A stretch of DNA of 45,852 nt from Prevotella sp. (lineage in GTDB: Bacteria; Bacteroidota; Bacteroidia; Bacteroidales; Bacteroidaceae): contig JAFZSR010000052.1 in assembly GCA_017619275.1 (NCBI GenBank), positions 1 through 45,852 of the forward strand, read 5' to 3'. How positions within the stretch are numbered: position 1 is the first letter of the stretch; every line of letters starts with the position of its first letter. This document shows positions 2,784 to 22,606 of this stretch, piece by piece. The position numbers and the translations under genes were made by a program. Below the pieces are notes generated by a model. The model was given only the letters and a program-made list of their open reading frames with translations. It made no database searches and was not told the origin of the DNA.

Positions 2784-3125
2784 ATGCAAGAAACAAGACA
2801 GAACAAGATTGCACGTCTGCTGCAAAAAGAGCTGAGCCAGATATTCCAGGAGCAAACCCGGAGCATGCACGGCGTGATGGTAAGCGTGACGCAGGTGCGC
2901 ATCAGCCCCGACCTGAGCGTGTGCACCGCCCATCTGAGCATCTTCCCGTCGGAACGGGGAGAAGAACTGCTGGCCAACATCAACAAGAACAACCAGCAGA
3001 TTCGCTACACACTGGGCCAGCGCGTGCGCCATCAGCTGCGCATCATCCCCGAACTGCGCTTCTTCATCGATGACTCCTTAGACTACATCGACCGCATCGA
3101 CGAGCTACTTGGAGTTAGGAGTTAG
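2784..3125 (+). CDS. rbfA: Ribosome-binding factor A
   Basis: This 113-residue KH-like protein assists 30S subunit maturation and binds 16S rRNA near helix 1. The opening TRQNKIARLLQKELSQIFQ and the segment VSVTQVRISPDLSVCTAHLSIF are typical of RbfA, as is the C-terminal RFFIDDSLDYIDRIDELL. The ATG at 2784 fits the family start better than an upstream GTG-type extension. The last four codons and the TAG stop (3111-3125) are supplied by the GGAGTTA heptad array, so the C-terminal residues GVRS are repeat-encoded. In related bacteria rbfA is, to my knowledge, usually followed directly by the permease gene that here lies behind the cassette at 3111-3556. Confidence 0.93.
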   Translation: MQETRQNKIARLLQKELSQIFQEQTRSMHGVMVSVTQVRISPDLSVCTAHLSIFPSERGEELLANINKNNQQIRYTLGQRVRHQLRIIPELRFFIDDSLDYIDRIDELLGVRS

Positions 3126-3145
3126 GAGTTAGGAGTTAGGAATTA
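3111..3145 (+). repeat. Left heptad array (GGAGTTA x5) of the four-helix-bundle cassette
   Basis: Four exact GGAGTTA units and a fifth GGAATTA run from 3111 to 3145. They contain the rbfA stop codon (3123-3125). The array is the reverse complement of the TAACTCC array at 3515-3556, so the pair forms inverted terminal arrays around the ORF at 3160-3531. Confidence 0.95.
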
Positions 3146-3159
3146 AAAAGAGTTGGGCT

Positions 3160-3531
3160 ATGGATGATTTTCGTTCATTCATATATGGTAAGTGTTTGGA
3201 TTTTTCTATACGAATATCTAAGCTTTATACGTATTTGTGTACTGTGAAGAAAGAGTATGTTTTTTCCAAACAAATCTTACGAAGCGGAACCAGTATAGGC
3301 GCGAACTTGGCTGAGGCACAGTATGGCATCAGCAGAAAGGACTTTTACAGCAAAGTGTATATCTCGCTGAAGGAGACGGCAGAGACAATGTATTGGTTGG
3401 AAATATTGCACAGAGACAACCAACTTGACGACAATCAGTTTAACTCTCTCTTCCATGATTGCGAGGAGCTGAAGAAACTCTTTATGTCAATCACTAAGAC
3501 CACCAAAGCCTCATTAACTCCAAACTCCTAA
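3160..3531 (+). CDS. Four-helix-bundle protein, S23 / 23S rRNA intervening-sequence family
   Basis: A 123-residue all-helical protein with the S23 family signature: RSGTSIGANLAEAQYG at 41-56 and SLKETAETMYWLEIL at 69-83. Related proteins are encoded inside intervening sequences of 23S rRNA genes in Leptospira and Coxiella. The Avd accessory protein of diversity-generating retroelements has the same fold. No enzymatic activity is known for the family. The gene is clearly more AT rich than its neighbours and sits between inverted heptad arrays (3111-3145 and 3515-3556). Its last residues, LTPNS, and its TAA stop are encoded by the right array. Placement between rbfA and a co-directional permease suggests a cassette inserted in an operon. 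The family call is strong; mobility is inferred. Confidence 0.93.
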   Translation: MDDFRSFIYGKCLDFSIRISKLYTYLCTVKKEYVFSKQILRSGTSIGANLAEAQYGISRKDFYSKVYISLKETAETMYWLEILHRDNQLDDNQFNSLFHDCEELKKLFMSITKTTKASLTPNS

Positions 3532-3556
3532 CTTCTAACTCCTAACTCCTAACTCT
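3515..3556 (+). repeat. Right heptad array (TAACTCC x6), inverted relative to the left array
   Basis: Six units (TAACTCC with variants AAACTCC, TAACTTC and TAACTCT) run in register from 3515 to 3556. They contain the stop codon of the four-helix-bundle gene (3529-3531) and end one base before the ATG of the permease at 3558. In RNA they could pair with the GGAGTTA units at 3111-3145, giving a stem of about 35 base pairs enclosing the ORF. Confidence 0.95.
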
Positions 3557-3557
3557 T

Positions 3558-4787
3558 ATGACCTTTCCTTTCTATATCGCTCGCCGTTATCTCTTCTCGA
3601 AGAAGTCGACCAACGTCATCAACCTCATCAGCGGCATCTCCGCCGTGGGTGTGGCCTTGGCCACGATGGCCATGGTGGTGACGCTGAGCGTGTTCAACGG
3701 CTTCAGCGACTTGGTGGCCACGCTCTTCACCAATTTCGACCCGCAACTGGAGCTGACGCCCATTGAGGGCAAGACCGCCCCTGCCGACGATCCGCTGCTG
3801 GCGCAGGTGCGCGAGCTGCCGCAGGTGGAGGTGGCCACCGAGTGTGTGGCCGATCAGGCACTGGCCGTCTATGCCGACCGTCAGGCCATGGTCACCGTGA
3901 AGGGCGTAGACGACAACTTCGACCGTTTGACGCGCATCCGCGATATTCTGCAGGGCGACGGCGAGTTTGAGCTGCACGCCGCCGACATGCACTACGGCAT
4001 CCCCGGCATACGTCTGGCCGAGATGCTGGGCACGGGCTATCGCTACGACCGGCCCCTGCACATCTATGCTCCCCGCCGCGAGGGCCAGCTCGATATGAAC
4101 GCCCCCGAGGAGGGCTTCGTCGAGGACTCGCTCTATTCGCCCGGCGTGGTGTTCAGTGTGCTGCAAGCCAAGTACGACCGTGGCTATATCCTTACCAGCA
4201 TCAGCTTCGCCCGCCGCATCTTCGACCAACAGGGTATGCTCTCCAGCCTGGAGTTGCGCCTGAAGCCCGGCAGCGACTTTGAGGCAGTGAAAAGCCGCAT
4301 CCGCCAAATTTGCGGTGAAAAATATAACGTGCGCGACCGCTATGAGCAGCAGGACGACACCTTCAGCATCATGAAGATTGAGAAGCTCATCGCCTACGTC
4401 TTCCTCACTTTTATCCTCATCGTGGCCTGCTTCAACATCATTGGAAGCCTCTCGATGCTCATCATCGACAAGCGCGACGACGTGCAGACGCTGCGCGCAC
4501 TGGGTGCCAACGATGGCCAGATATCTCGCATCTTCCTTTTTGAGGGTTGGCTCATCAGCATCATTGGCGCCATCGTGGGCATCCTCGTGGGTCTGCTGCT
4601 CTGCTGGCTGCAGCAGCGTTTCGGCATCATCGCCTTGGGTCAGAGCCAAGGCTCGTTCATCGTCGACGCCTACCCCGTCAGCGTGCATCCCTGGGACGTG
4701 GTGCTCGTCTTCGTCACGGTGATGGTGGTCAGCTTCCTCTCCGCCTGGTATCCCGTCCACCACTTCTCACGTCGCTTGCTGGGCTGA
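3558..4787 (+). CDS. FtsX/LolC-LolE-type ABC transporter permease
   Basis: An inner-membrane protein of 409 residues with the LolE/MacB layout. There is one N-terminal membrane segment (NVINLISGISAVGVALATMAMV, split here by no charge), a periplasmic domain of about 220 residues, then three membrane segments near 276-300, 330-350 and 375-400. FtsX-family permeases of this type extract lipoproteins from the inner membrane together with an ATPase; none is encoded next door. The opening PFYIARRYLFSKKSTN is typical of Bacteroidetes members located after rbfA. The ATG at 3558 immediately follows the heptad array. The lipoprotein-sorting role is inferred from the family. Confidence 0.85.
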   Translation: MTFPFYIARRYLFSKKSTNVINLISGISAVGVALATMAMVVTLSVFNGFSDLVATLFTNFDPQLELTPIEGKTAPADDPLLAQVRELPQVEVATECVADQALAVYADRQAMVTVKGVDDNFDRLTRIRDILQGDGEFELHAADMHYGIPGIRLAEMLGTGYRYDRPLHIYAPRREGQLDMNAPEEGFVEDSLYSPGVVFSVLQAKYDRGYILTSISFARRIFDQQGMLSSLELRLKPGSDFEAVKSRIRQICGEKYNVRDRYEQQDDTFSIMKIEKLIAYVFLTFILIVACFNIIGSLSMLIIDKRDDVQTLRALGANDGQISRIFLFEGWLISIIGAIVGILVGLLLCWLQQRFGIIALGQSQGSFIVDAYPVSVHPWDVVLVFVTVMVVSFLSAWYPVHHFSRRLLG

Positions 4788-4893
4788 AACCGTTCTCGGC
4801 AGTCGATTATCCTTTCCGTTGACAGCAAAAAATGCTGGCTCACCCGACCATTGGCTGTGGGCTGGCGACCCTCTTATCGACCTGCAAAAAAAA

Positions 4894-4908
4894 TCGTTAC
4901 CAAAATTT
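4894..4908 (+). promoter_or_regulatory. Shared upstream element TCGTTACCAAAATTT (copy 1)
   Basis: This 15-base sequence, preceded by an A tract, lies about 130 bases before the CotH gene start. An identical copy occurs on the minus strand at 40825-40839, again upstream of and pointing toward a secreted-protein gene. It could be a regulator site for exported-protein genes. Confidence 0.45.
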
Positions 4909-4944
4909 AGCATCCTTTTTACCGCTATTTCCGTTTTTTCTTTT

Positions 4945-4952
4945 TACCTTTG
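4945..4952 (+). promoter_or_regulatory. -7 element (TACCTTTG) of the CotH gene
   Basis: TACCTTTG followed by C matches the Bacteroidetes -7 consensus. A clear TTTG at the expected -33 position is lacking (only a T-rich run). The transcript would have a leader of roughly 80 bases. Confidence 0.5.
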
Positions 4953-5035
4953 CACCCGAATTTCAAAATGAACCAAGATGGGGAGCGCAACCAAGCGAAT
5001 TATTCGAAGCCACCTCAAATGAACTTGACTTAAAA

Positions 5036-8000
5036 ATGACCATGCGAAAGAAAAGATTGTTGTTCCTGTGTAGCCTCCTTATCATGGGCTGTCGTTCGCT
5101 CTTTGCGCAAGACGGCCTCATCATCAACGAGGTGATGGCCTCCAACGCAGGGATGGTGATGAGCCCGGCATATAATTTCGACAGTTGGATTGAAATCTAT
5201 AACCCCACGGGGCAGAGCAAAACCCTTACGGGCTATTACCTGAGCACCGACCCCGGCAATCTCACCCGCTGGAAGATGCCCTCAACCATTGGCACTGTTC
5301 CCGCCCATGGTTTTCTGGTGCTGTGGTTGGGTTCCGACGACATCAAAACCAATCAGGCTCCTTTCCACCTCGACTGCGATGGAGGCACCATCTGCCTTAC
5401 TGCACCCAGCGGTGAGCTCGTCACCAGCGTGGACTATCCCGAGGCCATGAGCCGCACGGCCTGGGCACGCAAGACCGATGGCGGCAACGAGTGGGGCTGG
5501 ACGGCAGAGCCCACGCCAGCTGCCACGAACGTCACGTCGCACTTCGCCACGGAGCGCCTCGATCCGCCCGTGGTCAACATCGGCAGTCAGCTCTTCAACG
5601 GCTCGCTCACGTTCAAGGTGGACATCCCTGAGGGCACCACGCTGCGCTACACTACCGACAACAGCATGCCCGACGCCCAGGATGCCCGGAGTGCCGACGG
5701 GCGCTTCACCGTGACGGGCAGCACGAACTACGTGTTCCGCCTGTTCAAGGAAGGCTATCTGCCCAGCGTTCCCGTCACCCGCAGCTTCATCCAGACCAGT
5801 AATACGTACACCATCCCTGTGATTTCGATTGTGGGCGACGAGCGCTACTTCACCGATTCGATGTGGGGCATCGATGTGAAGGGCAGCAACGGCAAGTCGG
5901 GCTTGGGCAGAGACGACCCCGTGAACTGGAACATGCCTTGGGACCGTCCGGTGAACATGAGCTACATCACACCCAACGAGGGAATGGTGTTCAACCAGGA
6001 CGTCAACATCAGCGTGTCGGGTGGTTGGTCGCGTGCCTCCACTCCTCGCTCCATGAAGCTGAAATCGAACAAGGTGTTCGACGGACTGAACCATCTCGAC
6101 TACGTCTTCTTCCCGCAAAAGCCCTTTATCCGCAGCAAGACCCTTTTGGTGCGCAACGGTGGCAACGACATGGGCAACTTTCATGCGCGCTTCACCGATC
6201 TGGCACTGACCAACATCTTGCAGCGGTCGGGGATGGACGTCGATGTGCAGAGCTATGTGCAGGTGGCCGAGTATATCAACGGTCGCTTCAAGGGCGTGCT
6301 GAACCTGCGCGAACCCAACAACGACAAGTTTGTGTATGCCAACTACGGCTACGACGATGACGAAATCGACATGTTCGAGAACGGCAGTTTCAGCAACGGC
6401 ACTGCCGATGCCTACAACAGCCTGTGCGAGCTGGCCACGCATATCAGTGAGGATGGGGTGTACGACGAGGTGAAGCGGCGGCTCGATGTGGACGAGTTTA
6501 TCAATTATATGGCGGTGGAGCTGTTCCTGGGCAACGACGACTGGCCCGAGAACAATGCCAAGGGCTTTCGCAGCCAGAACGACGGGCGCTTCCGCTTTAT
6601 CTGCTTCGACCTCGACCTCACGTTCAATCCCTGGGGAAGGGAGAGCTTCTCGAGCCTCAACACCCATCGCAGTGTGAAGATGGTCGCCCTGTTCTTGAAT
6701 CTGCTCAACAACGATGAGTTCCGCAAGCAGTTCATCGACACCTTCTGCATCGTGGCGGGCAGCGTCTACGAGAAGAGCCGTGCCATCCAGATTGTGAATG
6801 AGCTGTCAAGCGCCCTGCGACCCATGGCGGAGTACGACGGCTACGTGCCCGACCGTGCGGCCAACAACATCAAGAACAAGCTGAACAACAGGATGGAGGA
6901 GATGACCAACCGCATGCAGCAGTTCAAGCCCATGCAGCTCACGGGCGTCGCCAAGCAGAGCGTCACCATCGCCTCGGAGGTGGAGGGCGCCACGCTCTTC
7001 GTCAATGGACGGCAGATTCCTTATTCCTATTTCAAGGGCCGCCTCTTCCAGCCCGTGCAGTTGGAGGCCAAGGCCCCGGCGGGCTATACCTTTGCGGGCT
7101 GGCAAAAGGCTTCAGGCTCTACCATCAAACTGTTCGAATACGACACCACGTGGAAGTTCTACGACCAGGGCGAGCTGGGCGCCAACTGGCGCACAAATGA
7201 TTTCAGCGATGCATCGTGGCCTTCGGGCGAGGCCCCCTTGGGCTATAAGATGGCTGGCGTGACCACCACCGTGAGCTATGGCTCCGACTCGCAACGCAAG
7301 AATCCCACCACCTATTTCCGAAAGACCATCGTCCTCAATGCCAATCCCACCAGTGCCGACGTCTTTCAGCTGAACTATCAGCTGGACGATGGTTGCGTGG
7401 TCTGGGTCAACGGTCAGGAGGCAGGGCGGGTGAACATGCCGAGCGGCACCGTGGGCTACACCACGTTCTCGTCAACATACGCTGGTGATGATCCGCTCAC
7501 CGGCACGCTCGAGATCTCGCCCACGCTCTTCAAAAGGGGTTACAATGTCATAGCCGTGGAGGTGCACAACACCAGCTACACATCGGGCGACTTGTTCTGG
7601 GCATGCGAACTCCTTACATCGCTGGGCGCCGGCTCTAAAGAAGACATGCTGACCGACCCCATCATCGACCTGCCCGAAGGAAACAACGTGACGCTGACGG
7701 CCTGCTTCGACCCGCTGACCGAAGAAGAACGGCGGGCGCAAGGACTCACTCCCGTGCGCATCAACGAGGTGAGTGCCGCCAACGACATTTTCGTCAACGA
7801 ATACTTCAAGCGCAACGACTGGGTGGAGCTTTACAACACCACCGACGACGACATCGACGTGGCGGGCATGTATCTGAGTGATAAACCCGACAATCCCAAG
7901 AAATACCAGATTGTTGGTGGCGAGGGAATCTCGACCATCATCCCCGCGCATGGCTATCTCATCGTATGGTGCGACAAGCTGGAGCCGCAGTCGCAGCTCC

Positions 8001-8491
8001 ATGCGTCGTTCAAGCTGGCAGCCGATGGCGACGACGTGCTGCTCACCGCTGCCGACAGCAGTTGGACCGACCGCATGACCTATTCCTCCATGAAGGGCGA
8101 CGAGACCGTGGGCCGCTATCCCGACGGCAGCAATCAGGTCATCACCATGAACGTGCCCACCATCGCGAAAGCCAACATCACGAGCAGCTATGCCGAGATT
8201 GTCGACCAGCCCGAGCAGAGTGGCATCAGCGACATCGCTCTTGACGAAACGATTGGGCTCAGCGTGCGCTATCTGGCCCACCGCCTGGTGCTCCGCAGCA
8301 CGATGCCAACGGCCGTCGCCCATGTGGAAATCTGCAACCTGGCCGGCCAAAAGCTTTCCGAGCACGTCGTGACCCTGCGTGACGGCTTTGCCGAGCTGAT
8401 GCTCAACGGTCTGTCTTCAGGCTATTATCTGGCACGCCTCTCCGACGGGAACGGACACCAAGCCTCCTGCAAGTTTATAAATAGACCTTAA
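5036..8491 (+). CDS. Secreted CotH-family protein with two lamin-tail domains and T9SS sorting domain
   Basis: A surface or secreted protein of 1151 residues. A signal peptide (RKKRLLFLCSLLIMGCRSLFAQ) is followed by a lamin-tail domain (LIINEVMASNAG onward, about 24-150). A beta-rich segment comes next, then a CotH kinase-like domain whose core DLDLTFNPWGRE lies at 525-536. A beta-sandwich region of about 700-890 precedes a second lamin-tail domain from about 908 (VRINEVSAAND). The last 85 or so residues look like a type A T9SS sorting domain (VEICNLAGQKLSE, SSGYYLARLSDG). CotH proteins are atypical protein kinases; the substrate here is unknown. The ATG at 5036 (or 5042) is preferred over the upstream in-frame ATG at 4832 because it begins a proper signal peptide downstream of the promoter element. 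Confidence 0.87.
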   Translation: MTMRKKRLLFLCSLLIMGCRSLFAQDGLIINEVMASNAGMVMSPAYNFDSWIEIYNPTGQSKTLTGYYLSTDPGNLTRWKMPSTIGTVPAHGFLVLWLGSDDIKTNQAPFHLDCDGGTICLTAPSGELVTSVDYPEAMSRTAWARKTDGGNEWGWTAEPTPAATNVTSHFATERLDPPVVNIGSQLFNGSLTFKVDIPEGTTLRYTTDNSMPDAQDARSADGRFTVTGSTNYVFRLFKEGYLPSVPVTRSFIQTSNTYTIPVISIVGDERYFTDSMWGIDVKGSNGKSGLGRDDPVNWNMPWDRPVNMSYITPNEGMVFNQDVNISVSGGWSRASTPRSMKLKSNKVFDGLNHLDYVFFPQKPFIRSKTLLVRNGGNDMGNFHARFTDLALTNILQRSGMDVDVQSYVQVAEYINGRFKGVLNLREPNNDKFVYANYGYDDDEIDMFENGSFSNGTADAYNSLCELATHISEDGVYDEVKRRLDVDEFINYMAVELFLGNDDWPENNAKGFRSQNDGRFRFICFDLDLTFNPWGRESFSSLNTHRSVKMVALFLNLLNNDEFRKQFIDTFCIVAGSVYEKSRAIQIVNELSSALRPMAEYDGYVPDRAANNIKNKLNNRMEEMTNRMQQFKPMQLTGVAKQSVTIASEVEGATLFVNGRQIPYSYFKGRLFQPVQLEAKAPAGYTFAGWQKASGSTIKLFEYDTTWKFYDQGELGANWRTNDFSDASWPSGEAPLGYKMAGVTTTVSYGSDSQRKNPTTYFRKTIVLNANPTSADVFQLNYQLDDGCVVWVNGQEAGRVNMPSGTVGYTTFSSTYAGDDPLTGTLEISPTLFKRGYNVIAVEVHNTSYTSGDLFWACELLTSLGAGSKEDMLTDPIIDLPEGNNVTLTACFDPLTEEERRAQGLTPVRINEVSAANDIFVNEYFKRNDWVELYNTTDDDIDVAGMYLSDKPDNPKKYQIVGGEGISTIIPAHGYLIVWCDKLEPQSQLHASFKLAADGDDVLLTAADSSWTDRMTYSSMKGDETVGRYPDGSNQVITMNVPTIAKANITSSYAEIVDQPEQSGISDIALDETIGLSVRYLAHRLVLRSTMPTAVAHVEICNLAGQKLSEHVVTLRDGFAELMLNGLSSGYYLARLSDGNGHQASCKFINRP

Positions 8492-8530
8492 AGAGCCTCG
8501 GCCCAGCTAGCTTCTAAATAGTAAAATGAC

Positions 8531-8580
8531 CATAAAAGTTGATTTTTTCATCAAATTATTTGGTAGAATCAACTTTTATG
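8531..8580 (+). promoter_or_regulatory. Inverted-repeat operator overlapping the XRE-gene promoter
   Basis: A perfect 14-base inverted repeat, CATAAAAGTTGATT at 8531-8544 and its complement at 8567-8580, is separated by 22 bases. A promoter is embedded in it: TTTG at 8559-8562, then 20 bases, then TATTTTTG at 8583-8590. One half-site therefore fills the spacer of the promoter and the other lies just upstream. This is a natural operator for the helix-turn-helix protein that follows. It could also act as a weak terminator for the CotH gene. Confidence 0.6.
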
Positions 8581-8629
8581 TTTATTTTTGGGGCAATATA
8601 ATGAAGATGAATAGGGAAAGGAGGCGTTT

Positions 8630-8947
8630 ATGAAGACTAACAAGATAATGGATGATATTCGCAGTACCATCTCGCCGGAAATGAAGTTACAGATGGAACT
8701 GTCGGTTGCTATCTCCAATCGTATTTACGACATTCTAGAGAGAAAAGGAATGTCGCAAAAGGAATTCGCTCACATGATGGGTAAGACGGAAACAGAGGTT
8801 AGCCGTTGGCTGTCGGGAACCCATAACCTTACATTGGCTACCATCTGCAAAATATCTATTGCCCTGGGTGAAGATATTGTCAGAGTGGTGGGCGGTTCGT
8901 ATCAACCTGTTTATGATATCGAACCTATGGTGGCTGCTGAGCCATGA
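8630..8947 (+). CDS. XRE-family helix-turn-helix regulator (antitoxin-like)
   Basis: A 105-residue cytosolic DNA-binding protein. The helix-turn-helix spans about residues 32-88: KGMSQKEFAHMMGKTETEVSRWLSG is interrupted only by the turn, followed by HNLTLATICKISIALG. This resembles the antitoxins of HigBA/RelBE-like modules. No toxin gene is found on either side: the CotH gene is upstream, and a convergent exported-protein gene downstream. It is preceded by a strong Shine-Dalgarno (AAGGAGG about 8 bases before the ATG), which is unusual in Bacteroidetes, and by an inverted-repeat operator at 8531-8580, pointing to autoregulation. It is more AT rich than its neighbours. It may be an orphan antitoxin or a stand-alone repressor. 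Confidence 0.85.
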   Translation: MKTNKIMDDIRSTISPEMKLQMELSVAISNRIYDILERKGMSQKEFAHMMGKTETEVSRWLSGTHNLTLATICKISIALGEDIVRVVGGSYQPVYDIEPMVAAEP

Positions 8948-8974
8948 CTATGCCAGTGCAGCTTGCGGATAATC

Positions 8975-9931: not shown

Positions 9932-10614
<683 letters not shown>

Positions 10615-10615
<1 letters not shown>

Positions 10616-12786
10616 TGAAACGACTACTAACGATGATGATGCTGGCGGCCATCAGCTGCACCGCCCTCGCCCAGGGCACCGTGGCCGACTACCAGCGTTC
10701 GAGTGCCATCCGTGGCAAGTATTCGAACAAGATGACTAATGGCGATGTGAATGTGCGCCGCATGCGTGGCGAAGGCCACAAGTTTTGGTACTCCGTTTGG
10801 AACGGTGACTCCACCGTGTATAAGGAGGTGGATGCCGACAAGAACACGGTGACGCTGTTGCCTGGCAACCCCGAGGAGCCACGCCAGCGCCGCTGGCAGG
10901 GAGGCGGTAGAGGTCCCCAGCGCCACTGGGCAGAGGTGCCCGACGAGAAAGACGGCTGGCAGCGCTCGCCCATCGACTCCACGCTCTCTGTCTTCCACCG
11001 CGACAATAACCTGTGGACCCGACAAGGCGGCATAGAGAAGCCACTCACCACCAACGGCGACAGCACCAACTATTACTCGGCATGGGGACGCTTCTCGGCC
11101 GATGGCCGCTACTATGCTACCGTGCGCATCAAGCCCGCGCCGAAGCATTACTATTATTATGTGGAGGCTTCCCCACGCCCAATGTTCAACGCTCAACGTC
11201 CAATGTTCAACGCTCAACGTTCACCGTCCAACGTTCACCGTTCACCGTTCACCGTCCAACAGCCCGTTCTCCATAAGCTGGAGTATGCAAAGCCCGGCGA
11301 CTCGCTCAACTATCGCGTGCCCGTAGTGGTGGAGGTGGCCACGGGGCGTGTGGTGGAACCTTCCACAGAGCTGTTCAAGCAACAATATGATGTGAGCGCC
11401 CCCCGCTGGGACAAGAACAACCGCACGCTCACCTTCACCTTCAACGAGCGCGGACATCACACCTATCGCCTGTTGGAATTAGACGCCGAGACGGGACAGG
11501 TGCGCACGCTCATCGAGGAGAAGAACGACAAATATGTGAACTATAACCGCCTCTACCGACACGACTTCGACGACGGGCGGCGCATCCTTTGGACCAGCGA
11601 GCGCGACGGCCGCAACCACATCTATCTCTACGACAGGGAGAAGGCTCAGCTCATCCGCCAGGTGACGAAGGGCGAGTTCTACGTGCGCAACATTGTTCAT
11701 GTCGACGAGAAGCAGGGCATCGTCTATTTCACGGCCAACGGCATGAACAAGGATGAAGACCCTTATCTGATTCATTATTATAAAATCAAGCTCGACGGCA
11801 AGGGTCTTACCTGTCTGACGCCCGAAGAGGGCAACCATCGCGCCACCTTCACCGAAGACATGCAATACCTCATCGACACCTACAGCACCGTGCTGAATCC
11901 TCCCGTCACCGTGCTTCGGCGTGCGAAAGACGGAAAGGTGATGCGCACCCTGGAGACGGCCGACATCACCCGCCTCGTGGCGGAGGGCTGGAAGGCGCCG
12001 GAGGTGTTCGTGGCTCCCGGCCGCGACGGCGTCACCCCGATGTGGGGCCTCATCCAGCGTCCCTCGAACTTCGACCCGCAGAAGAAATATCCCATCATAG
12101 AATACATCTACAGCGGTCCTGGCGACCAGTATGTGCCCAAGACGTTCACGCCATGGCTCTATTATCTGCAGGACTTGGCCGAGCTGGGGTTCATCGTCGT
12201 TCAGCTCGACGCCATGACCACCTCGTTCCGCACGCGGGCCTTTGAGGAGGTGTGCTACAAGAACCTGAAGGACGCCGGACTGCCCGACCGCATTGCCTGG
12301 ATTAAGGCGGCCGCTGCCAAGTACCCCTACATGGACATCGACCGCGTGGGTATCTATGGCTGCTCCGCCGGCGGACAGAACGCCATGGCGGCTGTGCTGT
12401 GGCATGGCGACTTCTACAAATGCGCCTACGCCGCCTGCGGTTGCCACGACAACCGCATGGACAAGATTTGGTGGAACGAGCAATGGATGTCCTATCCCCT
12501 CGACAGCAGCTATGTGGAGTGCAGCAACGTAGAGAACGCTTGGCGCTTGGAGCGTCCGCTGATGCTCGTCGTGGGCGAGATGGACGACAATGTGGACCCG
12601 GCCTCCACCATGCAGGTGGTGGCAGCACTGCAACGAGCCGGCAAAGATTTCGAGTTGGTGGTCATCCCCGGCGCTCGCCACACCATGGGCGAAACCTTCG
12701 GCGAGCACAAGCGGGCCGACTTCTTCGTGCGCCATCTGCTCGGCGTGGAGCCGCCAAAGTGGAACGAGCTAAAAGCCAGGAATTAG
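10615..12786 (+). CDS. Dipeptidyl-peptidase IV-like serine peptidase (family S9)
   Basis: An exported peptidase of 723 residues: signal peptide (KRLLTMMMLAAISCTALAQ), a DPP-IV N-terminal beta-propeller (about 90-450) and a C-terminal alpha/beta hydrolase domain. The triad is visible: Ser584 in YGCSAGG, Asp657/658 in EMDDNVDP and His689 in GARHTMGE. Such enzymes clip dipeptides (classically after Pro) from peptide N termini in the periplasm. Residues about 188-216 are encoded by a 12-unit heptad array that forms a repetitive, Asn/Gln/Arg-rich loop absent from typical family members. The ATG at 10615 starts the signal peptide; an ATG at 10597 lies within repeat sequence. The stop codon (12784-12786) again falls in a heptad array. 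Confidence 0.9.
11177..11260 (+). repeat. In-frame heptad array, GTTCAAC family (12 units)
   Basis: Twelve 7-base units (GTTCAAC, GCTCAAC, GTCCAAT, GTTCACC and GTCCAAC variants) occupy 84 bases, divisible by both 3 and 7, so the peptidase frame is kept. Gain or loss of one or two units would shift the frame. The same consensus recurs in the sense strand of the gene at 32791-36834. Confidence 0.93.
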
Positions 12787-17000: not shown

Positions 17001-18297
17001 CATGCTGGCGGTTCTCAAGGATAAAGTATTCCTTCTTCACCTGCGAATTGATGCGGTATCCAGCGTTGCTTTGGCCGATGTTTTCCAAGCTGAAGCTGCC
17101 TGGCTCTTCGATGAGCTGCGGCGTGGCAAAGCCAAGGGCATAGCGCTCAAAGAGTGAATAGGCGCAGGGGGTACGGCCGTAGTTATAGTCGGCGCCATTG
17201 GCCATCACCGACCATTCGCCGGGATCGATGCACATGCCAGGATATTCATTGTCGGTATCGTAGAAATCGGGCAAGCCCAACACATGGCTGAACTCGTGGC
17301 ACATCGTGCCGATGCCCTCCAGGATGCTCCAGTCGTAGCTCTCGTAGCCAAAGAGCTCGGTGCTACAGGCATAGCGGCCCAGCAGCACGCCGTCTTTGCG
17401 AGTACGCATATAGCCCAGGTCCGACTGGTGCGGCCACAGCAGGCGGGGGTCGTTGCCCTGTATATAGGCAGCGTTGCCAGCGAAGATGAAGTAGATCATG
17501 TCCACCACGCCATCGTTGTTAACATCGTAGTCTTTGAAGTTCACCTGCGAGTCGGCAGCGGTGCAGGCATCAACGAACAGTTGACCGCCGCCCGTGAAGT
17601 CCTTGCCACCAGGGAAGTATTGGCTGCGATTGATTTGCACAGGACCCACCACATCGAAGGTGGGGTCGAAGATGCCGTTGCTGTTGTCATAGAAATAGTC
17701 GCGCATGCTACCTGTGCACTGCAGTGTCTTGCTACCCAGCCAATAGGGCAGTGTGGGGTTGGTGCGCTCCTCGCCGGTGTAGTTCGGCTGGTTAATCATC
17801 TGCTGCATGATGTCGGCATAGTCGTCGTACTGGAACTGGCAGTCGTTATATTCCACCAGCAGCACCAAGCCCTTGAAGGCCGAATAGTCGTAGCGCTGGG
17901 CACGGCTGGCCTCGGCAGCCCTGCGGCGGCTTTCGGCATTCTGCTGCTTCAGCTGCTTCATCTGTGCGCTCATCTGGGGCTTCAGCTGTCCCGTCTGCTG
18001 CAGGAAGGCCAGTTCCTGGGCCGAGCGCTGGGCGGCATCGTGGGCCACCAGCGTGGTGGGTATCAGCTGTCCGTCGCTGTCGAGCTGGGCATAGACGTAA
18101 GCACCGTTGGCATCCTTCACCAAGGCAAAACCGTCGGCAGTGGTGTTATAGTGCAGATACTCATCACCCACCAAGCGCAGACTCAGGCGGGTGCCGTCGG
18201 GCTGATTCACGCTTACCGTGCCGCGAAGGGCGGGGCGTGCCCATGCCGATGCCACACCAAGCAGCACCGACAACATCAAGATCATTGTTTTCTTCAT
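14038..18297 (-). CDS. M6-family secreted metalloprotease with Big_2 modules and sorting domain
   Basis: An exported protein of 1419 residues. A signal peptide ([19 protein letters not shown]) and propeptide precede an M6 (immune inhibitor A-like) zinc peptidase domain of about 140-560. The zinc motif [11 protein letters not shown] starts at His334. Then come three Ig-like Big_2 segments (motifs [45 protein letters not shown]), alternating with OB-like modules (YVRDATGS / YVRDASGAI / YVRDATSAI). The C terminus ([23 protein letters not shown]) resembles a T9SS type A sorting domain. The modules repeat at DNA level with an offset of about 820 bases. It would be secreted and digest extracellular protein. 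Promoter at 18327-18358. Confidence 0.9.
15053..15300 (-). repeat. Intragenic direct repeat, copy A (second copy near 15872-16119)
   Basis: This stretch of the M6 protease gene recurs about 819 bases away (273 codons) at 15872-16119 with very few differences. Both copies encode the same run of motifs, including [19 protein letters not shown] and [11 protein letters not shown] third, more diverged module is present nearer the C terminus. The similarity points to recent internal duplication or gene conversion. Confidence 0.8.
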
Positions 18298-18326
18298 TAT
18301 CCTTGTTATTTTTCAATTTCAGCGTG

Positions 18327-18358
18327 CAAATATACGCATTTTATACGAACTGACCAAA
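18327..18358 (-). promoter_or_regulatory. Promoter of the M6 protease gene
   Basis: On the minus strand TTTG (18355-18358) is followed after 20 bases by TATATTTG (18327-18334), a good match to the Bacteroidetes consensus, 30 bases before the ATG at 18297. The element lies between the gene and the adjoining heptad array. Confidence 0.7.
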
Positions 18359-18385
18359 CAACACGCTCGATTTCTTGGTCAGCGC

Positions 18386-18546
18386 ATTCTAAAGTCTATA
18401 GTCTATCGTCTACAGTCAAAAAACTAAAGTCTATAGTCTACAGTCGAAAATCTAAAGTCTATAGTCTACAGTCGAAAATCTAAAGTCTATAGTCTACAGT
18501 CAAAATTCTAAAGTCTATAGTCTACAGTCAAAAATCTACAGTCAAA
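18386..18546 (-). repeat. Tandem heptad array, AGTCTAY family (~23 units, 28-base superrepeat)
   Basis: About 23 units in perfect 7-base register (plus-strand reading AGTCTAT, AGTCTAC, AGTCGAA, AATCTAA and similar). The quartet AGTCTAT-AGTCTAC-AGTCRAA-AWTCTAA repeats about four times, giving a 28-base higher-order period. The array contains the stop codon of the LOG-family gene (18542-18544). Confidence 0.95.
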
Positions 18547-19072
18547 AAAGTAGAGACTCCAGCTCGTCCAAAGTGTTTGCCACCTGGATGTAGCTTCGCC
18601 ATTGCTTGCGGGTGACGCCGCGCTGGTGCAGGTCGTCGAGACAAGCGATGAGCGAGTCCCAGAATCCTTTGATGTTATAAAGGATGATAGGCTTGTCGTG
18701 ATAGCCCAGTGTGGCAGCCGAGGTCACGGTGAACAGCTCGTCGAGCGTGCCGATACCACCGGGCAATACGATGAAGGCATCGCTCTGCGCCATCATCAGC
18801 GACTTGCGGTCGCTAAGGTCTTCGGTGGGGATGTGCACGTCGAGCCAGGGACTGAGGCGTCCCATCTCCTCAATCACGCGAGGCACCACCCCAATTACCA
18901 TTCCGCCGGCCTCCTTGGCCGCCTTACTCACCGAGTGCATCAACCCAGCGTCATGACCGCCAAACACGATGGAATGGCCGTTTTTTGCGGCCCACACGCC
19001 CAGCTCACGGGCTTTTTCAAAAAAGTCAGGGTCAATCTGCTGATTGGCCGAACAGAATACACAGAGTTTCAT
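18542..19072 (-). CDS. LOG-family protein (TIGR00730, nucleoside 5'-monophosphate phosphoribohydrolase-like)
   Basis: A 176-residue Rossmann-fold cytosolic protein with the family's PGGIGTLDE motif at 104-112 and an early GGHDAGLM nucleotide-binding loop at 38-45. LOG proteins cleave the base from (cytokinin) nucleoside monophosphates; in bacteria many act on AMP or other nucleotides, and the in vivo role is often unknown. The last residue and TGA stop come from the heptad array that begins here. A -7-like element (TACCTTTG on the minus strand, 19121-19128) lies about 50 bases upstream of the ATG. Confidence 0.9.
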   Translation of the reverse strand: MKLCVFCSANQQIDPDFFEKARELGVWAAKNGHSIVFGGHDAGLMHSVSKAAKEAGGMVIGVVPRVIEEMGRLSPWLDVHIPTEDLSDRKSLMMAQSDAFIVLPGGIGTLDELFTVTSAATLGYHDKPIILYNIKGFWDSLIACLDDLHQRGVTRKQWRSYIQVANTLDELESLLF

Positions 19073-19120
19073 TTTATTGGTTATTCCTCATTGAGTTTTT
19101 TACGTTTCGCTAATAGGTTG

Positions 19121-19128
19121 CAAAGGTA
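19121..19128 (-). promoter_or_regulatory. -7 element of the LOG-family gene
   Basis: The minus strand reads TACCTTTG followed by CAACC, the Bacteroidetes -7 element. No clean TTTG is seen at the -33 distance. Confidence 0.5.
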
Positions 19129-19221
19129 CAAATAAAACCAGATAATCTGATGAGACCATCTGGAATTTAGGAATAATTTGCAATCATTGGTGTCTTGGTA
19201 AAATGAGCCTTTCATTTGTTT

Positions 19222-19302
19222 AAACCGCGACGCGGTCTATATAAACCGTGACGCAGTTTTTATAGACTACGACATAGTTTATAAAAACCACGACGTGATT
19301 TG
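19222..19302 (+). repeat. 21-base-period palindromic repeat cluster (4 units)
   Basis: Four units start at 19222, 19243, 19264 and 19285, each exactly 21 bases. Each has an imperfect palindrome at its core: ACCGCGACGCGGT, ACCGTGACGCAGT, ACTACGACATAGT and ACCACGACGTGAT, joined by A/T-rich spacers. Paired changes in the two arms (C/G to T/A) suggest that the palindromy is maintained. A 13-base direct repeat, AATAATTTGCAAT, flanks the cluster at 19172-19184 and 19362-19374. The rest of the 439-base gap (19073-19511) contains promoters only. Confidence 0.75.
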
Positions 19303-19449
19303 AAGAATGTCTGCATGTCTAGAGCATAAGTCCTGGTGCAGGCCGTTTTTCCCTTGACACCAATAATTTGCAATACATAGCCAGAGGGCTGCGCATTTGC
19401 AGGGTGATATTTTTGATTTTTTATCGCTTATGAAAAGAATTGTATTTCT

Positions 19450-19484
19450 TTTGTGCTTACTTCTTCGAAAAATTCGTACCTTTG
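19450..19484 (+). promoter_or_regulatory. Promoter of the YfhO-like gene
   Basis: TACCTTTG at 19477-19484 followed by CAAGC matches the -7 element. A TTTG at 19450-19453 is present but with a 23-base spacer, longer than ideal. The ATG is at 19512. Confidence 0.55.
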
Positions 19485-19511
19485 CAAGCAAATTGTACAA
19501 TTAATTACATC

Positions 19512-22007
19512 ATGAACAACATTTTGAAACGGTGGCTGCCCGATGTGGTGGCCGTGGTATTGTTTGCCGCACTAGCATTTGCCTATTTCTACCCCGCCGA
19601 CACCGAGGGGCGCATCCTCTATCAGCACGACACCTCGGCCGGAGCCGGCGCCGGACAGGAAGGGCTGGAGTATATGAAAACCCACGACGGTGAGCGCACC
19701 CGCTGGACCAACAGCCTCTTTGGGGGCATGCCCACCTACCAGTTGGCCCCATCGTACAACAGCACCCAGGCGCTCTCGGTGGCCGAGAAAGCCTACCACC
19801 TGTGGCTGCCCGACAACGTGTGGTTCCTCTTCGCCTATCTGCTGGGCTTCTACATCCTGCTGCGCGCCTTCAACTTCAAGCAGTATTTGGCAGCGTTGGG
19901 CAGCATCATGTGGGCCTTCAGCACCTATTTTCTCATCATCATAGCCGCCGGACACCTGTGGAAAGTGATGGCGCTGGCCTACCTGCCCCCGCTCATCGGT
20001 GGCATCGTGCTTGCCTATCGCGGCAAGCTGTTGCCTGGACTGGCCGTGACGGCCATCTTCACCGCACTGGAGATTCACGCCAACCACATGCAGATGACCT
20101 ACTACTACCTGTTCCTCATGCTCTTCATGGTAGTGGCATGGGCAGTGGAGGCCGCTCGCAATAAGCAATGGATGCGCTGGCTGAAGGCCACGGGCGTGTG
20201 CCTGCTGGGCGGACTATTGGGCGTGCTGGTGAACCTGTCGAACATCTACCACACGTGGGAGTACTCGCAACATACCATGCGCGGCGGCACCGAACTGAAC
20301 CAGGGTGACGGTCAGGCTGGGACCAGCGGCGGACTGGACCGCGACTACATCACGCAGTGGAGCTATGGCATCGGCGAAACGTGGACACTGCTCATCCCCA
20401 ATGCCAACGGCGGCTCGCACAATGAGCAGCTGCGCGATAACAAGGCGGCGATGGAAGCCAGCGACCCACAGCTGCGCGACTTCTGCGGACAGTGGTATCC
20501 CTACTTCGGACAGCAGCCCTTCACGGCGGGTCCCGTCTATGTGGGCGCCTTCGTGCTCGCCCTCTTCGTGCTGGGACTCTTCGTGGTAAAAGGGCCGATG
20601 AAATGGGCACTTTTGGCGGCTACCATCTTCAGCATCCTGTTGTCGTGGGGCAAGAATTTCATGCCGCTCACCGACTTCTTCATCGACCATGTGCCGATGT
20701 ATGCCAAGTTCCGCACGCCCAGCAGCATCCTCGTCATCGCCGAGTTTACCATACCGTTGTTGGCCATGCTCACGCTGAAGAAAATCATCGACGAACCGGA
20801 ACTGCTGGCCAAGAAGATGAAATATGTTTGGGCATCGCTGGGACTCACCGCTGGCTTCTGCCTGCTCTTCGCCCTGCTGCCCACGACATTCTTCGACTTC
20901 GTGAGCGATGGCGACACGCAGCGCCTGTCGCGCTATGTAGACCCGCAGAGCATGAGCATGGTGACCGACAACCTGGCAAAGATGCGTGTGCCTGTGTTCA
21001 CACAAGACTGCTGGCGCTCGTTCATTATTATCATCATCGGCTTCGCCCTGCTGTTGCTCTACAAGGCCAAGAAGCTGAAGGCCATGCCGATGGTGGGGCT
21101 GATGGCGGTGCTCTGCCTGGTTGACCTGTGGATGGTGAACAAACGCTACCTGAACGACTCGATGTTCGTGGATGCTGGCATCAAGCAGACCTCGCACGCC
21201 ATGAAGCCCGTGAACAAGTTCATTCTGCAAGACAAAGACCCGAACTTCCGCGTGCTGAACTTTGCCGGCGACACGTTCAACGAGAACGAGACCAGCTTCT
21301 ACCACAAGTCGGTGGGTGGCTACCACGCTGCCAAGCTGGGCCGCTACAACGAGCTGATTTCGGCATATATCGCACCGGAGATGCAAAGTGCCATCGGCGC
21401 CATCCAGCAGGCACAGGGCGTGATGGACAGCATAGAGGGTGGAGCCTCGGTCTATCCGGTTATCAACATGCTCAACACAAAGTACTTCATCGTGAGTGAC
21501 GACATGGCACTGCCCAACCCCTTCGCACAGGGCAACGCCTGGTTTGTGGATAGACTACAGTATGTGGCCGACGCTAACGAGGAGCTGGCAGGACTACGGC
21601 AAGTGGACCTGCGGCACGAAGCTGTGGCCGACCGCAAGTTTGAGTCCGTGCTGGGACAGCCGGCAGCAGCCGACTCCACTGCCAGCGTGCATCTCGACAG
21701 TTATGAACCCAACCAGCTGAAATACACCGTCGACAGTCAGACGGGCGGCGTGCTCGTCTTCTCGGAAATCTACTATCCCGGTTGGACGGCCACCGTTGAC
21801 GGACAGACGGCCGAGCTGGGACGCGTGAACTATGTACTTCGCGCCATGCACATCGCGCCGGGTAAACACCAGGTGGAACTGAGCTTCTTCCCGCAGACGG
21901 TGAAGAACACCGAGACCGTCGCCTATGTGGCACTCATCGTCATGGCACTGCTACTACTTGCCGCCATCGGTTTTGGACTAAAGAAAAGAAAGACTATAGA
22001 AGGTTGA
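19512..22007 (+). CDS. YfhO-like polytopic membrane protein (GT-C-type)
   Basis: A protein of 831 residues with an N-terminal membrane helix, then a series of hydrophobic segments over roughly 85-500 (for example VWFLFAYLLGFYILLRAF and VTAIFTALEIHANHM). A large soluble C-terminal part follows, with a last helix VAYVALIVMALLLLAAIGFG at the end. This matches Bacteroidetes proteins annotated as YfhO family, related to membrane glycosyltransferases of the GT-C fold that use lipid-linked sugars. The early acidic HDTSAGAGAG region and the HANHMQMTYY motif fit that class. The donor and acceptor are unknown. The TGA stop (22005-22007) lies inside the GACTATA heptad array. The upstream in-frame extension to 19440 is rejected because it overlaps the promoter. 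Confidence 0.8.
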   Translation: MNNILKRWLPDVVAVVLFAALAFAYFYPADTEGRILYQHDTSAGAGAGQEGLEYMKTHDGERTRWTNSLFGGMPTYQLAPSYNSTQALSVAEKAYHLWLPDNVWFLFAYLLGFYILLRAFNFKQYLAALGSIMWAFSTYFLIIIAAGHLWKVMALAYLPPLIGGIVLAYRGKLLPGLAVTAIFTALEIHANHMQMTYYYLFLMLFMVVAWAVEAARNKQWMRWLKATGVCLLGGLLGVLVNLSNIYHTWEYSQHTMRGGTELNQGDGQAGTSGGLDRDYITQWSYGIGETWTLLIPNANGGSHNEQLRDNKAAMEASDPQLRDFCGQWYPYFGQQPFTAGPVYVGAFVLALFVLGLFVVKGPMKWALLAATIFSILLSWGKNFMPLTDFFIDHVPMYAKFRTPSSILVIAEFTIPLLAMLTLKKIIDEPELLAKKMKYVWASLGLTAGFCLLFALLPTTFFDFVSDGDTQRLSRYVDPQSMSMVTDNLAKMRVPVFTQDCWRSFIIIIIGFALLLLYKAKKLKAMPMVGLMAVLCLVDLWMVNKRYLNDSMFVDAGIKQTSHAMKPVNKFILQDKDPNFRVLNFAGDTFNENETSFYHKSVGGYHAAKLGRYNELISAYIAPEMQSAIGAIQQAQGVMDSIEGGASVYPVINMLNTKYFIVSDDMALPNPFAQGNAWFVDRLQYVADANEELAGLRQVDLRHEAVADRKFESVLGQPAAADSTASVHLDSYEPNQLKYTVDSQTGGVLVFSEIYYPGWTATVDGQTAELGRVNYVLRAMHIAPGKHQVELSFFPQTVKNTETVAYVALIVMALLLLAAIGFGLKKRKTIEG

Positions 22008-22110
22008 CTTTAGACTATAGACTGTAGACTATAGAGAAAAAACTATAGATAAAAGACTGTAGACTATAGAGAAAAAACTATAGATAAAAGACTGTAGACT
22101 TTAGACATTA
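21992..22110 (+). repeat. Left heptad array (GACTATA family, ~17 units) of the GxxExxY cassette
   Basis: Units GACTATA, GACTTTA, GACTGTA, GAGAAAA, AACTATA and GATAAAA run in 7-base register from the last codons of the YfhO-like gene to 22110. A 35-base block (GACTGTA-GACTATA-GAGAAAA-AACTATA-GATAAAA) occurs twice. The orientation is opposite to the AGTCTAN array at 22512-22606, so the two form inverted arrays around the ORF at 22129-22509. Confidence 0.93.
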
Positions 22111-22128
22111 CTAATAAGCAATATTAAT

Positions 22129-22509
22129 ATGGATGCTATTGAACTGAAGAATGCCATTGCTGATTGTGCCAAGCGTGTGAGGAGGCAGCTGACGCCAGGC
22201 TTTGAGGAAAAGGTGTATCAGAACGCTATGGTCATTGAACTGAAGGACAGCGGCTTGAACGTAGAAACTGAAGTACCCATAAAAGTGTATTATAAAGACC
22301 ATGTGGTGGGCGATTACCGCGCCGACCTTATCGTGGAAAAGAAGATGATTGTAGAGTTGAAAGCAGTCAGCGCTATCTTGCCCATCCATGAAGTACAGCT
22401 GGTGAACTACCTCACTGCAACCGGCATTGACAGCGGCATGCTCATCAATTTCGGCTCCGACATCATAGAAATCCGCTACAGAACACGACTATACAAAATC
22501 AAACCATAA
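22129..22509 (+). CDS. GxxExxY protein (PD-(D/E)XK nuclease-like)
   Basis: A 126-residue protein with the name-giving motif G24-F-E-E27-K-V-Y30 and a PD-(D/E)XK-type core: Asp66 (YRADLIVE), then Glu76-Leu-Lys78 (MIVELKAVS). The C-terminal SGMLINFGS is conserved. The fold predicts a divalent-metal nuclease, but no activity is established for the family; members are abundant as solitary genes in Bacteroidetes and cyanobacteria. The gene is less GC rich than its neighbours and lies between inverted heptad arrays at 21992-22110 and 22512-22606, the same layout as the four-helix-bundle gene at 3160-3531. A truncated relative lies at 226-447. A cassette origin is inferred from this parallel. Confidence 0.93.
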   Translation: MDAIELKNAIADCAKRVRRQLTPGFEEKVYQNAMVIELKDSGLNVETEVPIKVYYKDHVVGDYRADLIVEKKMIVELKAVSAILPIHEVQLVNYLTATGIDSGMLINFGSDIIEIRYRTRLYKIKP

Positions 22510-22511
22510 AC

Positions 22512-22606
22512 AGTCTAAAGTCTATAGTCTAAAGTCAATAATCTACAGTCTACAGTCCATCATCTAAAGTCAATCATCTACAGTCTAAAGTCAAACCTAC
22601 AGTCAA
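22512..22606 (+). repeat. Right heptad array (AGTCTAN family, ~14 units)
   Basis: Units AGTCTAA, AGTCTAT, AGTCAAT, AATCTAC, AGTCTAC, AGTCCAT and CATCTAA continue in register to 22595. They are followed by one 5-base broken unit and then AGTCAA directly before the ATG of the AraC gene at 22607. This is the reverse-complement family of the array at 21992-22110. Confidence 0.92.

What the first reader, a model, noticed from the sequence alone, without database searches (positions are those of the whole stretch)
3111..22606. Two unrelated small ORFs packaged identically between inverted heptad arrays: a candidate cassette/mobile system
Directly visible: the S23-type four-helix-bundle gene (3160-3531) lies between GGAGTTA x5 and TAACTCC x6, and the GxxExxY gene (22129-22509) lies between GACTATA x17 and AGTCTAN x14. 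In both, the flanks are inverted, the period is exactly 7, the upstream gene's stop codon is inside the left array, and the right array ends at the next gene's ATG. Both ORFs are more AT rich than their neighbours. Established: S23 proteins occur in 23S rRNA intervening sequences flanked by inverted repeats cut by RNase III. Inference: these are intervening-sequence-like or non-autonomous mobile cassettes whose ends are made of short tandem repeats. Both families may be cargo or partners of the same repeat-making machinery.
Basis: partly seen in the sequence, partly recalled or inferred. Interest (0 to 1): 0.88.

Follow-up and report, generated by a model that had tools for sequence, protein, structure and literature searches.

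The report
Mobile hairpins with tandem-repeat ends
Two small bacterial genes of unknown function sit between mirror-image arrays of short DNA repeats, and comparison across genomes suggests that they are the protein-coding members of a widespread class of tiny mobile elements whose gene-less copies may account for many unexplained short repeats between bacterial genes.

Summary
The S23 gene (3160-3531; PF05635/TIGR02436) and the GxxExxY gene (22129-22509; PF13366/TIGR04256) lie between inverted arrays of 7-bp units, inside operon-like gene pairs. It is a rule: 30 of 41 S23 and 17 of 25 GxxExxY loci of the genus have inverted flanks at a score that 0 of 262 other genes of this genome reach. S23 loci of many phyla, cyanobacteria included, show the same. 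Units differ between loci but agree within one.

The arrays also occur without the gene, as hairpins or solo arrays. Some are present in one close relative and missing in the other. Four keep the S23 inner box but have a 13-53 nt loop in place of the ORF. The closest relative has only two GGAGTTA units at the S23 site. A prediction written beforehand held in the one genome tested: a gammaproteobacterium rich in the published Xanthomonas heptad GGGAATC has one S23 gene, between inverted GGGAATC arrays.

Best reading: ORF-bearing members of small mobile hairpin elements, of which the 23S rRNA intervening sequence is one resident. Mobility is inferred from comparison; its mechanism is not shown.

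The parts
3111..3145 (+). left array, GGAGTTA x5; holds the stop of the upstream gene (3125)
3160..3531 (+). S23-type four-helix-bundle ORF, 123 aa (TIGR02436, PF05635)
3515..3555 (+). right array, TAACTCC x5.9, inverted copy of the left array; overlaps the end of the ORF; next ATG at 3558
   Evidence: pairs with 3111-3146 as an inverted repeat
21991..22105 (+). left array, 7-bp units of the type GACTATA/GACTGTA, interrupted by A-rich stretches; holds the stop of the upstream gene (22007)
22129..22509 (+). GxxExxY ORF, 126 aa (TIGR04256, PF13366); PD-(D/E)XK catalytic residues invariant in 24 aligned relatives
22510..22606 (+). right array, AGTCTAN units, inverted relative to the left array; next ATG at 22607
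   Evidence: inverted repeat with 21991-22065
1771..1911 (.). solo array without ORF, unit of the same type as the GxxExxY arms (GTCTATA/GTCTACA); the relative G059 has a different hairpin at this junction
18384..18536 (.). array without ORF, same unit type
10563..10616 (.). solo array TAAATGA without ORF, between two genes; unit resembles the arms of another S23 locus of this genome (L004)

Best explanation
The two loci are ORF-bearing copies of small (about 0.45-0.6 kb) mobile elements. Each end is an array of short tandem units, the two ends inverted to each other; in some S23 elements an inner box (GAC[GA]ATAGT or close to it) follows. The ORF (S23, an Avd-like four-helix bundle; or GxxExxY, with the catalytic set of PD-(D/E)XK nucleases) most likely recognises its own arrays and helps the element spread. 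Copies that lost the ORF but kept the arrays survive as hairpins and solo arrays, are moved in trans, and make up part of the known intergenic heptad repeats. Elements settle where a hairpin does least harm: between co-directional genes, nearly always sense, and in loops of structured RNA; they are transcribed with the host operon and fold into a long stem. The 23S rRNA intervening sequence would be one resident of the class. Shown here: anatomy, prevalence, ORF-less derivatives, presence/absence between relatives, sense orientation, purifying selection. Inferred: that the protein drives mobility, and that the mobile form is the hairpin, as RNA or single-stranded DNA.
For: Inverted flanks: 30 of 41 S23 and 17 of 25 GxxExxY genus loci versus 0 of 262 other genes; above all 60 shuffles in 37/41, 61/79 and 24/30 S23 and 19/25 and 25/30 GxxExxY loci, versus 1/9 long weak PF05635 proteins. 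Empty sites: none of 29 relatives has the S23 gene at this junction, 8 of 28 with both neighbours have overlapping stop/start, the closest has two GGAGTTA units; GxxExxY absent from two relatives with the same neighbours; 1 of 5 S23 sites shared with the closest relative. ORF-less copies: 156 GGAGTTAGGAGTTA in G059, reversed-string control 1; four elements with array plus inner box on both sides and no ORF; presence/absence in both directions. Sense between co-directional genes in 36/41 and 62/75 S23 loci, antisense there 0 and 1; background 117 and 42 of 272. dN/dS 0.095 for one S23 pair, 0.031 for the window GxxExxY gene. S23 of L037 matches Avd, 8.8e-16. Prediction written met in G722. Hairpin in an RNase P RNA loop. 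Coxiella IVS: heptamers before the S23 start, variable copy number, RNase III excision (PMC4990558, passages).
Against: No movement, binding or cleavage was observed, and no target-site duplication was found. S23 has no known catalytic site. A minority of loci lack inverted arrays; two genus S23 loci have direct arrays (L072, L074) and 13 of 25 genus GxxExxY loci have significant direct repeats. Some sites are shared across genera and one array is letter-identical in G000 and G059, so copies can be long-lived. Arm-protein similarity outside shared sites is weak. The inner box is on both arms in only 6 of 32 genus S23 loci with arms. The window S23 itself has no PHROG match. Sense orientation could merely reflect the ORF's need of a host promoter; 2 of 10 cyanobacterial plasmid loci are antisense. 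The Xanthomonas paper found its heptads mostly at conserved places and not associated with known mobile elements (PMC4692102, passages); the Beggiatoaceae TAACTGA sets are mostly direct (PMC4679880, passages).
Confidence: 0.6

Rival explanations
1. Arrays first: heptad arrays arise by slippage or another process, and S23 and GxxExxY genes are separate selfish genes that insert into ready-made arrays or ready-made hairpins.
For: Arrays without the gene are commoner than with it (32 solo arrays outside the S23/GxxExxY loci in 445 kb). The closest relative has two GGAGTTA units without the gene at the very site. Heptads are said to be over-represented in bacteria, with slippage proposed (PMC4692102, passages).
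Against: Insertion into a direct array would leave the same orientation on both sides; the flanks are inverted (37 of 41 genus S23 loci above all shuffles, against 6 of 41 for direct). ORF-less hairpins carry the S23 inner box. The association holds across phyla with different units.
Confidence: 0.15
2. A third enzyme (a reverse transcriptase, a host recombinase or replication template switching) makes and moves the hairpins; S23 and GxxExxY are accessory factors or passengers.
For: S23 has no known catalytic centre, and its relative Avd works beside a reverse transcriptase (PMC10053308, passages). Two unrelated ORFs share one architecture.
Against: Of 12 inverted pairs with 300-800 nt loops in 445 kb, 9 hold S23 or GxxExxY (two of the 9 are pairings at one GxxExxY locus), 1 a weak PF05635 protein and 2 neither; random cargo should be more varied. 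Unit length differs between the two families.
Confidence: 0.15
3. Not mobile: operon-junction RNA devices. The stem is cut (RNase III) or stabilises the mRNA, and the small protein regulates its own operon.
For: Sense orientation inside operon-like pairs, long stems, some conserved sites such as sdhA|sdhB and kduI|kduD-like pairs (gene names by recall).
Against: 4 of 5 S23 sites are not shared with the closest relative; host genes are unrelated from locus to locus; hairpins also lie within coding frames and in RNase P RNA.
Confidence: 0.07
4. Defence or toxin-antitoxin cassettes flanked by recombination-prone repeats.
For: Small ORFs with patchy distribution; one is nuclease-like.
Against: No PADLOC match for either protein; arrays also spread without the ORF.
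Confidence: 0.03

Closest known systems
23S rRNA intervening sequences (IVS) with an S23 ORF, e.g. of Coxiella burnetii (PMC4990558, passages read)
   Same: S23-family ORF between inverted flanks; heptamers of variable number next to the start; carried in a transcript; the paper calls it a selfish element
   Different: These lie between protein genes, not in 23S rRNA (no LSU rRNA in 20 loci tested; none in the window); both arms are tandem arrays, and ORF-less copies abound in the genome
REPINs with RAYT transposases (PMC3116915, abstract read)
   Same: Short repeats as inverted doublets forming hairpins in extragenic space, linked to one protein gene; gene-less copies dominate
   Different: Protein is an S23 four-helix bundle or a PD-(D/E)XK family member, not a tyrosine transposase; ends are head-to-tail arrays of 7-11 bp units
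Heptad repeat arrays: cyanobacterial STRRs (recalled; use as fingerprint seen in the PMC5088731 listing), GGGAATC/GGGGA[TC]T (PMC4692102, passages), TAACTGA (PMC4679880, passages)
   Same: Intergenic 7-bp tandem units, genome-specific, partly in inverted pairs
   Different: The passages seen do not link them to S23 or GxxExxY genes ('S23' and 'four helix' do not occur in either paper's main text)
MITE with tandem repeats 'BrickBuilt' of Porphyromonas gingivalis (PMC4596501, abstract read)
   Same: Bacteroidota, intergenic, tandem repeats within an inverted-repeat element
   Different: 23-bp units between small inverted ends; no ORF-bearing partner described in the abstract
Diversity-generating retroelements (Avd)
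   Same: S23 is in the same protein family as Avd (PMC10053308, passages)
   Different: No search for a reverse transcriptase or template/variable repeat near the two genes was made; none is evident from the ORF list

Membership tests
23S rRNA IVS element | ORF of the S23 family (PF05635) | tested here: met
   3160-3531: PF05635 2e-24, TIGR02436 5e-28
23S rRNA IVS element | inverted flanks forming a stem | tested here: met
23S rRNA IVS element | located in a 23S rRNA gene | tested here: not met
   no Rfam match in the window; no LSU rRNA in 20 S23 loci
23S rRNA IVS element | excised from RNA by RNase III | not testable with these tools
   needs RNA end mapping
REPIN/RAYT | inverted doublets of a short repeat forming hairpins, many copies per genome | tested here: met
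   G059: 156 double units; 11 of the 17 sites I chose to read have both orientations
REPIN/RAYT | associated RAYT (Y1 tyrosine transposase) gene between the repeats | tested here: not met
   the ORFs between the arrays are PF05635 and PF13366
MITE of an S23 element | ORF-less copies share the termini of the ORF-bearing copy | tested here: met
   array plus GAC[GA]ATAGT-type box on both sides at L028, L361, L382, L301, as in the S23 elements L001 and L271; found only for the WQ-type S23 clade, not for the window S23
transposable element | target-site duplication | tested here: inconclusive
   none seen by eye; array ends and divergence blur the junctions
transposable element | presence/absence at orthologous sites | tested here: met
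diversity-generating retroelement | Avd-like protein | tested here: met
   S23 of L037 to phrog_3206, 8.8e-16; the window S23 itself has no match
diversity-generating retroelement | reverse transcriptase and template/variable repeats nearby | not tested
   no dedicated search was made
PD-(D/E)XK nuclease (GxxExxY) | catalytic D...ExK | tested here: met
   D66, E76, K78 and also E27, Q90, Y94 invariant in 24 sequences; PF13366 4e-38
PD-(D/E)XK nuclease (GxxExxY) | nuclease activity | not testable with these tools
   bench assay needed; structure prediction could not be run

The most novel reading that the evidence does not exclude
S23 four-helix bundles and GxxExxY nucleases are the enzymes or specificity factors of two parallel, unrecognised classes of bacterial mobile element that spread as a transcribed hairpin (perhaps RNA, by analogy with Avd and the RNA-borne IVS). 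They are the source of the heptad and related arrays of Bacteroidota, cyanobacteria, xanthomonads and others, and the 23S rRNA intervening sequence is only their best-known landing site.
Probability: 0.38. Interest if true: 0.95.

Novelty: new variant of a known kind. Interest (0 to 1): 0.86.

Why it matters
If true it ties together orphans that have been studied apart: the S23 protein family, the GxxExxY family, the 23S rRNA intervening sequences, and the 7-bp repeat arrays described in cyanobacteria, Xanthomonas, Beggiatoaceae and Bacteroidetes. It offers mobile elements with no recognised transposase and, in each genome, a protein-repeat pair that can be tested at once. It would also explain why such arrays occupy operon junctions, RNA loops and protein linkers.

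Tried and rejected
Rejected or weakened: (1) rRNA as the reason for homologous outer flanks of similar S23 loci: Rfam found no LSU rRNA in 20 loci; the flanks are protein genes. (2) Defence cargo: no PADLOC match. (3) Period 7 as universal: of 94 periodic S23 arm pairs (9 loci counted twice) 87 have period 7, 8 or 14 and 7 have 9-11; of 36 GxxExxY arm pairs only 20 are periodic, 11 of them with 9 or 10. (4) The longer weak PF05635 proteins as the same kind: 1 of 9 passes, though one (L032:13117-13818) has 9-bp inverted arms. (5) Strong protein-repeat co-evolution: the Mantel signal (p <= 0.001 in the genus set and in the wide set) comes largely from homologous sites; without them arms match (score >= 30) in 13% of 53 pairs at protein similarity 0.6-0.7, 5.5% of 253 at 0.5-0.6 and under 1% below. 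(6) The cross-locus 99th percentile was inflated by repeats shared between loci (0 of 41 S23 loci exceed it), so background genes and shuffles were used instead. (7) Link of solo arrays to resident genes is only moderate: 18 of 32 match a resident arm against a mean of 7.3 for foreign arms, and 6 of 200 draws reach 18.

Led nowhere: PDB searches for GxxExxY (nothing below E 0.36); dN/dS of the neighbouring genes (the script crashed after the two element pairs); structure prediction (never ran).

Rows dropped or capped: of 47 PF05635 places over cut-off, 41 were used (2 partial or broken and 4 long-ORF places left out). Of 29 GxxExxY places, 25 used (4 fragments left out). One search fetched 30 loci from the top of a much longer list. 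One search listed 46 places, 30 were fetched, several are broken genes, and 9 repeat loci. 10 of 33 plasmid hits were opened. The 17 short G059 sites were chosen by me from the first places listed, many because a pair was visible.

Print: no paper linking S23 or GxxExxY genes to heptad arrays appeared in the listings (open-licence PMC only), apart from the Coxiella heptamers, a partial precedent.
Full report
What is there. The window is contig C71 of an incomplete genome (3.59 Mb, 127 contigs), probably close to Prevotella (an inference: records most like its S23 relatives are Prevotella and Prevotellaceae). At 3160-3531 is an S23-type four-helix-bundle gene and at 22129-22509 a GxxExxY gene. 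Both lie between inverted arrays of 7-bp units, wedged between two co-directional genes, with the upstream stop in the left array and the next start just after the right one. Both ORFs are AT-richer than their neighbours. As RNA each element folds into a long stem (about 31 bp around the S23 ORF; z = -5.7 and -7.2).

It is a rule. I aligned the flank left of each ORF to the reverse complement of the flank right of it. Of 262 other genes in 445,852 bases of this genome none reached score 34 (maximum 28); in the genus (20 genomes) 30 of 41 S23 and 17 of 25 GxxExxY loci did. Against 60 dinucleotide shuffles per locus, the inverted score beats all shuffles in 37 of 41 genus S23 loci, 61 of 79 S23 loci of many phyla, 24 of 30 S23 loci of nine genomes from other phyla (9 loci shared with the previous set), 19 of 25 genus and 25 of 30 phylum GxxExxY loci, and 1 of 9 longer weak PF05635 proteins. 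The direct score does so in 6, 8, 2, 13, 8 and 1. At the fixed threshold of 34 the wide sets give 35 of 79 (99th percentile of cross-locus pairs 35.2), 23 of 30 (36.2), 11 of 30 GxxExxY (34.6) and 6 of 10 cyanobacterial plasmid loci (42.7). Examples: AGTAGTC/AGTAGCC in a deltaproteobacterial MAG (31 of 31 identical), GGGGAGT in a treponeme, TTAGCCG in a clostridial MAG, GGTCGGA in a phycisphaera, TAGGGAG in a Nostoc plasmid. The unit differs from locus to locus but agrees between the arms of one locus. S23 arms mostly repeat every 7 or 8 bp; GxxExxY arms are less regular (20 of 36 periodic, 11 of those with 9 or 10 bp).

The same arrays occur without the gene. The closest relative, G059, has 156 exact GGAGTTAGGAGTTA (reversed-string control 1). 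Of 17 such sites that I chose to read, 11 hold both orientations around a short loop. In this genome the commonest period-7 unit is GTTGAAC (13 of 46 runs in 445 kb, element arms included), the arm unit of another S23 gene here (L002). Of 32 solo arrays 18 match a resident arm, against a mean of 7.3 for arms of other genomes of the genus (6 of 200 draws reach 18). Most telling are four elements, one in this genome and three in G059, that keep array and inner box GAC[GA]ATAGT on both sides but have a 13-53 nt loop instead of an S23 ORF (L028, L361, L382, L301). The same box stands inside two full S23 elements found by that scan. With a looser pattern the box is on both arms of 4 of 12 WQ-type and 2 of 20 other genus S23 loci (0 of 1600 shuffles). 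It marks some S23 elements, not all, and not the window's.

They come and go. At this S23 junction none of 29 relatives has the gene; of 28 with both neighbours, 8 have overlapping stop and start codons, and the closest (the two neighbours 96% and 91% identical) has just two GGAGTTA units. Others have unrelated solo arrays or ORF-less inverted pairs at this very place (by eye). At the second junction G059 has the GxxExxY gene with rearranged arrays, and two other relatives have the neighbours without it (gaps 97 and 20 nt; the neighbour pair was found in 4 of 30 loci, own included). Of five S23 genes here, one shares its site with G059. Of 48 array clusters of this genome 10 could be placed in the G059 stretches held, and 11 of 82 the other way; at least five are present in one and missing in the other, some are changed, and one is letter-identical. 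Some S23 sites are shared across genera, so copies can last.

The proteins matter. Between the two species dN/dS is 0.095 for the one shared S23 gene (L005/L287, not the window's) and 0.031 for the window GxxExxY gene. GxxExxY keeps E27, D66, E76-x-K78, Q90 and Y94 in all 24 sequences aligned, the pattern of PD-(D/E)XK nucleases with a QxxxY motif (likeness to RecB and Cas4 is recalled). A canonical S23 (L037) matches Avd of diversity-generating retroelements (8.8e-16; a phage Avd gene at 2e-6; PMC10053308, passages); the window S23 itself has no PHROG match. A profile of four S23 proteins matches the solved 2GSC (9e-36).

Orientation. S23 is sense between two co-directional genes in 36 of 41 and 62 of 75 loci and antisense there in 0 and 1; ordinary gene triples give 117 and 42 of 272. 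GxxExxY: 17 of 23 and 24 of 30, antisense 1 and 2. Two of ten cyanobacterial plasmid loci are antisense. So the element is normally transcribed with its host operon. That fits an RNA-borne life like that of the 23S intervening sequence, or simply the need of the ORF for a promoter; I cannot separate the two.

A test stated in advance. Xanthomonas is known for intergenic GGGAATC heptads, with 70 and 75 inverted pairs in two genomes (PMC4692102, passages). Among 369 genomes around a gammaproteobacterium 9 had the double unit, and one, G722, had many (29; control 0). I then wrote that its S23 gene, if any, should lie between inverted GGGAATC arrays. It has one PF05635 match, which looks frameshifted, between what look like accB and accC (names by recall), and GGGAATC arrays flank it in inverted orientation (score 48). 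Three other GGGAATC sites there are inverted pairs too. This is one genome. Against it, the paper reports its heptads mostly at conserved places and not associated with known mobile elements.

Link to the rRNA intervening sequence. In Coxiella the 23S element carries the S23 ORF with heptamers of varying number just before its start, and RNase III removes it (PMC4990558, passages). In the present genome a GTTGAAC-type hairpin sits in a loop of the RNase P RNA. I therefore read the rRNA element as one resident of a wider class.

Mechanism and limits. Most likely the protein recognises its own arrays and helps spread hairpin copies, with gene-less copies moved in trans; this step is inferred. 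No movement, binding or cleavage was seen, no target duplication was found, arm-protein co-variation outside shared sites is weak, and a minority of loci have direct or no arrays. Several genus GxxExxY loci (L079, L083, L085, L091, L093, L100) carry whole hairpins as direct repeats on both sides, which this reading does not explain in detail. If S23 has no enzymatic role, a third enzyme must do the copying.

Noticed in passing
L023:187-630 (- strand), insert about 448-487: RNase P RNA (RF00010, 172 bits) of this genome carries a GTTGAAC-type heptad hairpin as an insert in one of its loops, a parallel to intervening sequences in rRNA.
   Followed up: partly
window 11194-11265, 32872-32909, 41629-41673: Heptad arrays inside reading frames, read in frame as NVQR- or SHLSPLT-like linkers; the last is missing from the relative G059.
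   Followed up: partly
window 286-426 (- strand): A partial GxxExxY match (positions 65-110 of 117, 46 bits) near the contig end.
   Followed up: no
L301:10446-10577; L027:1932-2074: A further hairpin type, AAGCCCCCTAA...GGGGGTCTGAAC, sits at intergenic sites; in G059 it replaces the window's solo array at 1771-1911.
   Followed up: no
L301:11416-12120: G059 has two small ORFs between the neighbours at window 2734-2781 that look like a HigB/HigA toxin-antitoxin pair (by eye).
   Followed up: no
L032:13117-13818: A 233-aa protein with a weak N-terminal PF05635 match lies between inverted 9-bp GTAGGTNNN arms; most such long proteins have no inverted flanks.
   Followed up: partly
L079, L083, L085, L091, L093, L100: GxxExxY genes flanked by long direct repeats, each itself a hairpin of short-unit arrays.
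   Followed up: partly
L359 and L351: An S23 gene with AAAGCTA-type arrays lies between cas6 and cas4 on a Pseudanabaena plasmid; another with TAGGGAG arrays lies antisense between ribonucleotide reductase genes on a Nostoc plasmid.
   Followed up: no
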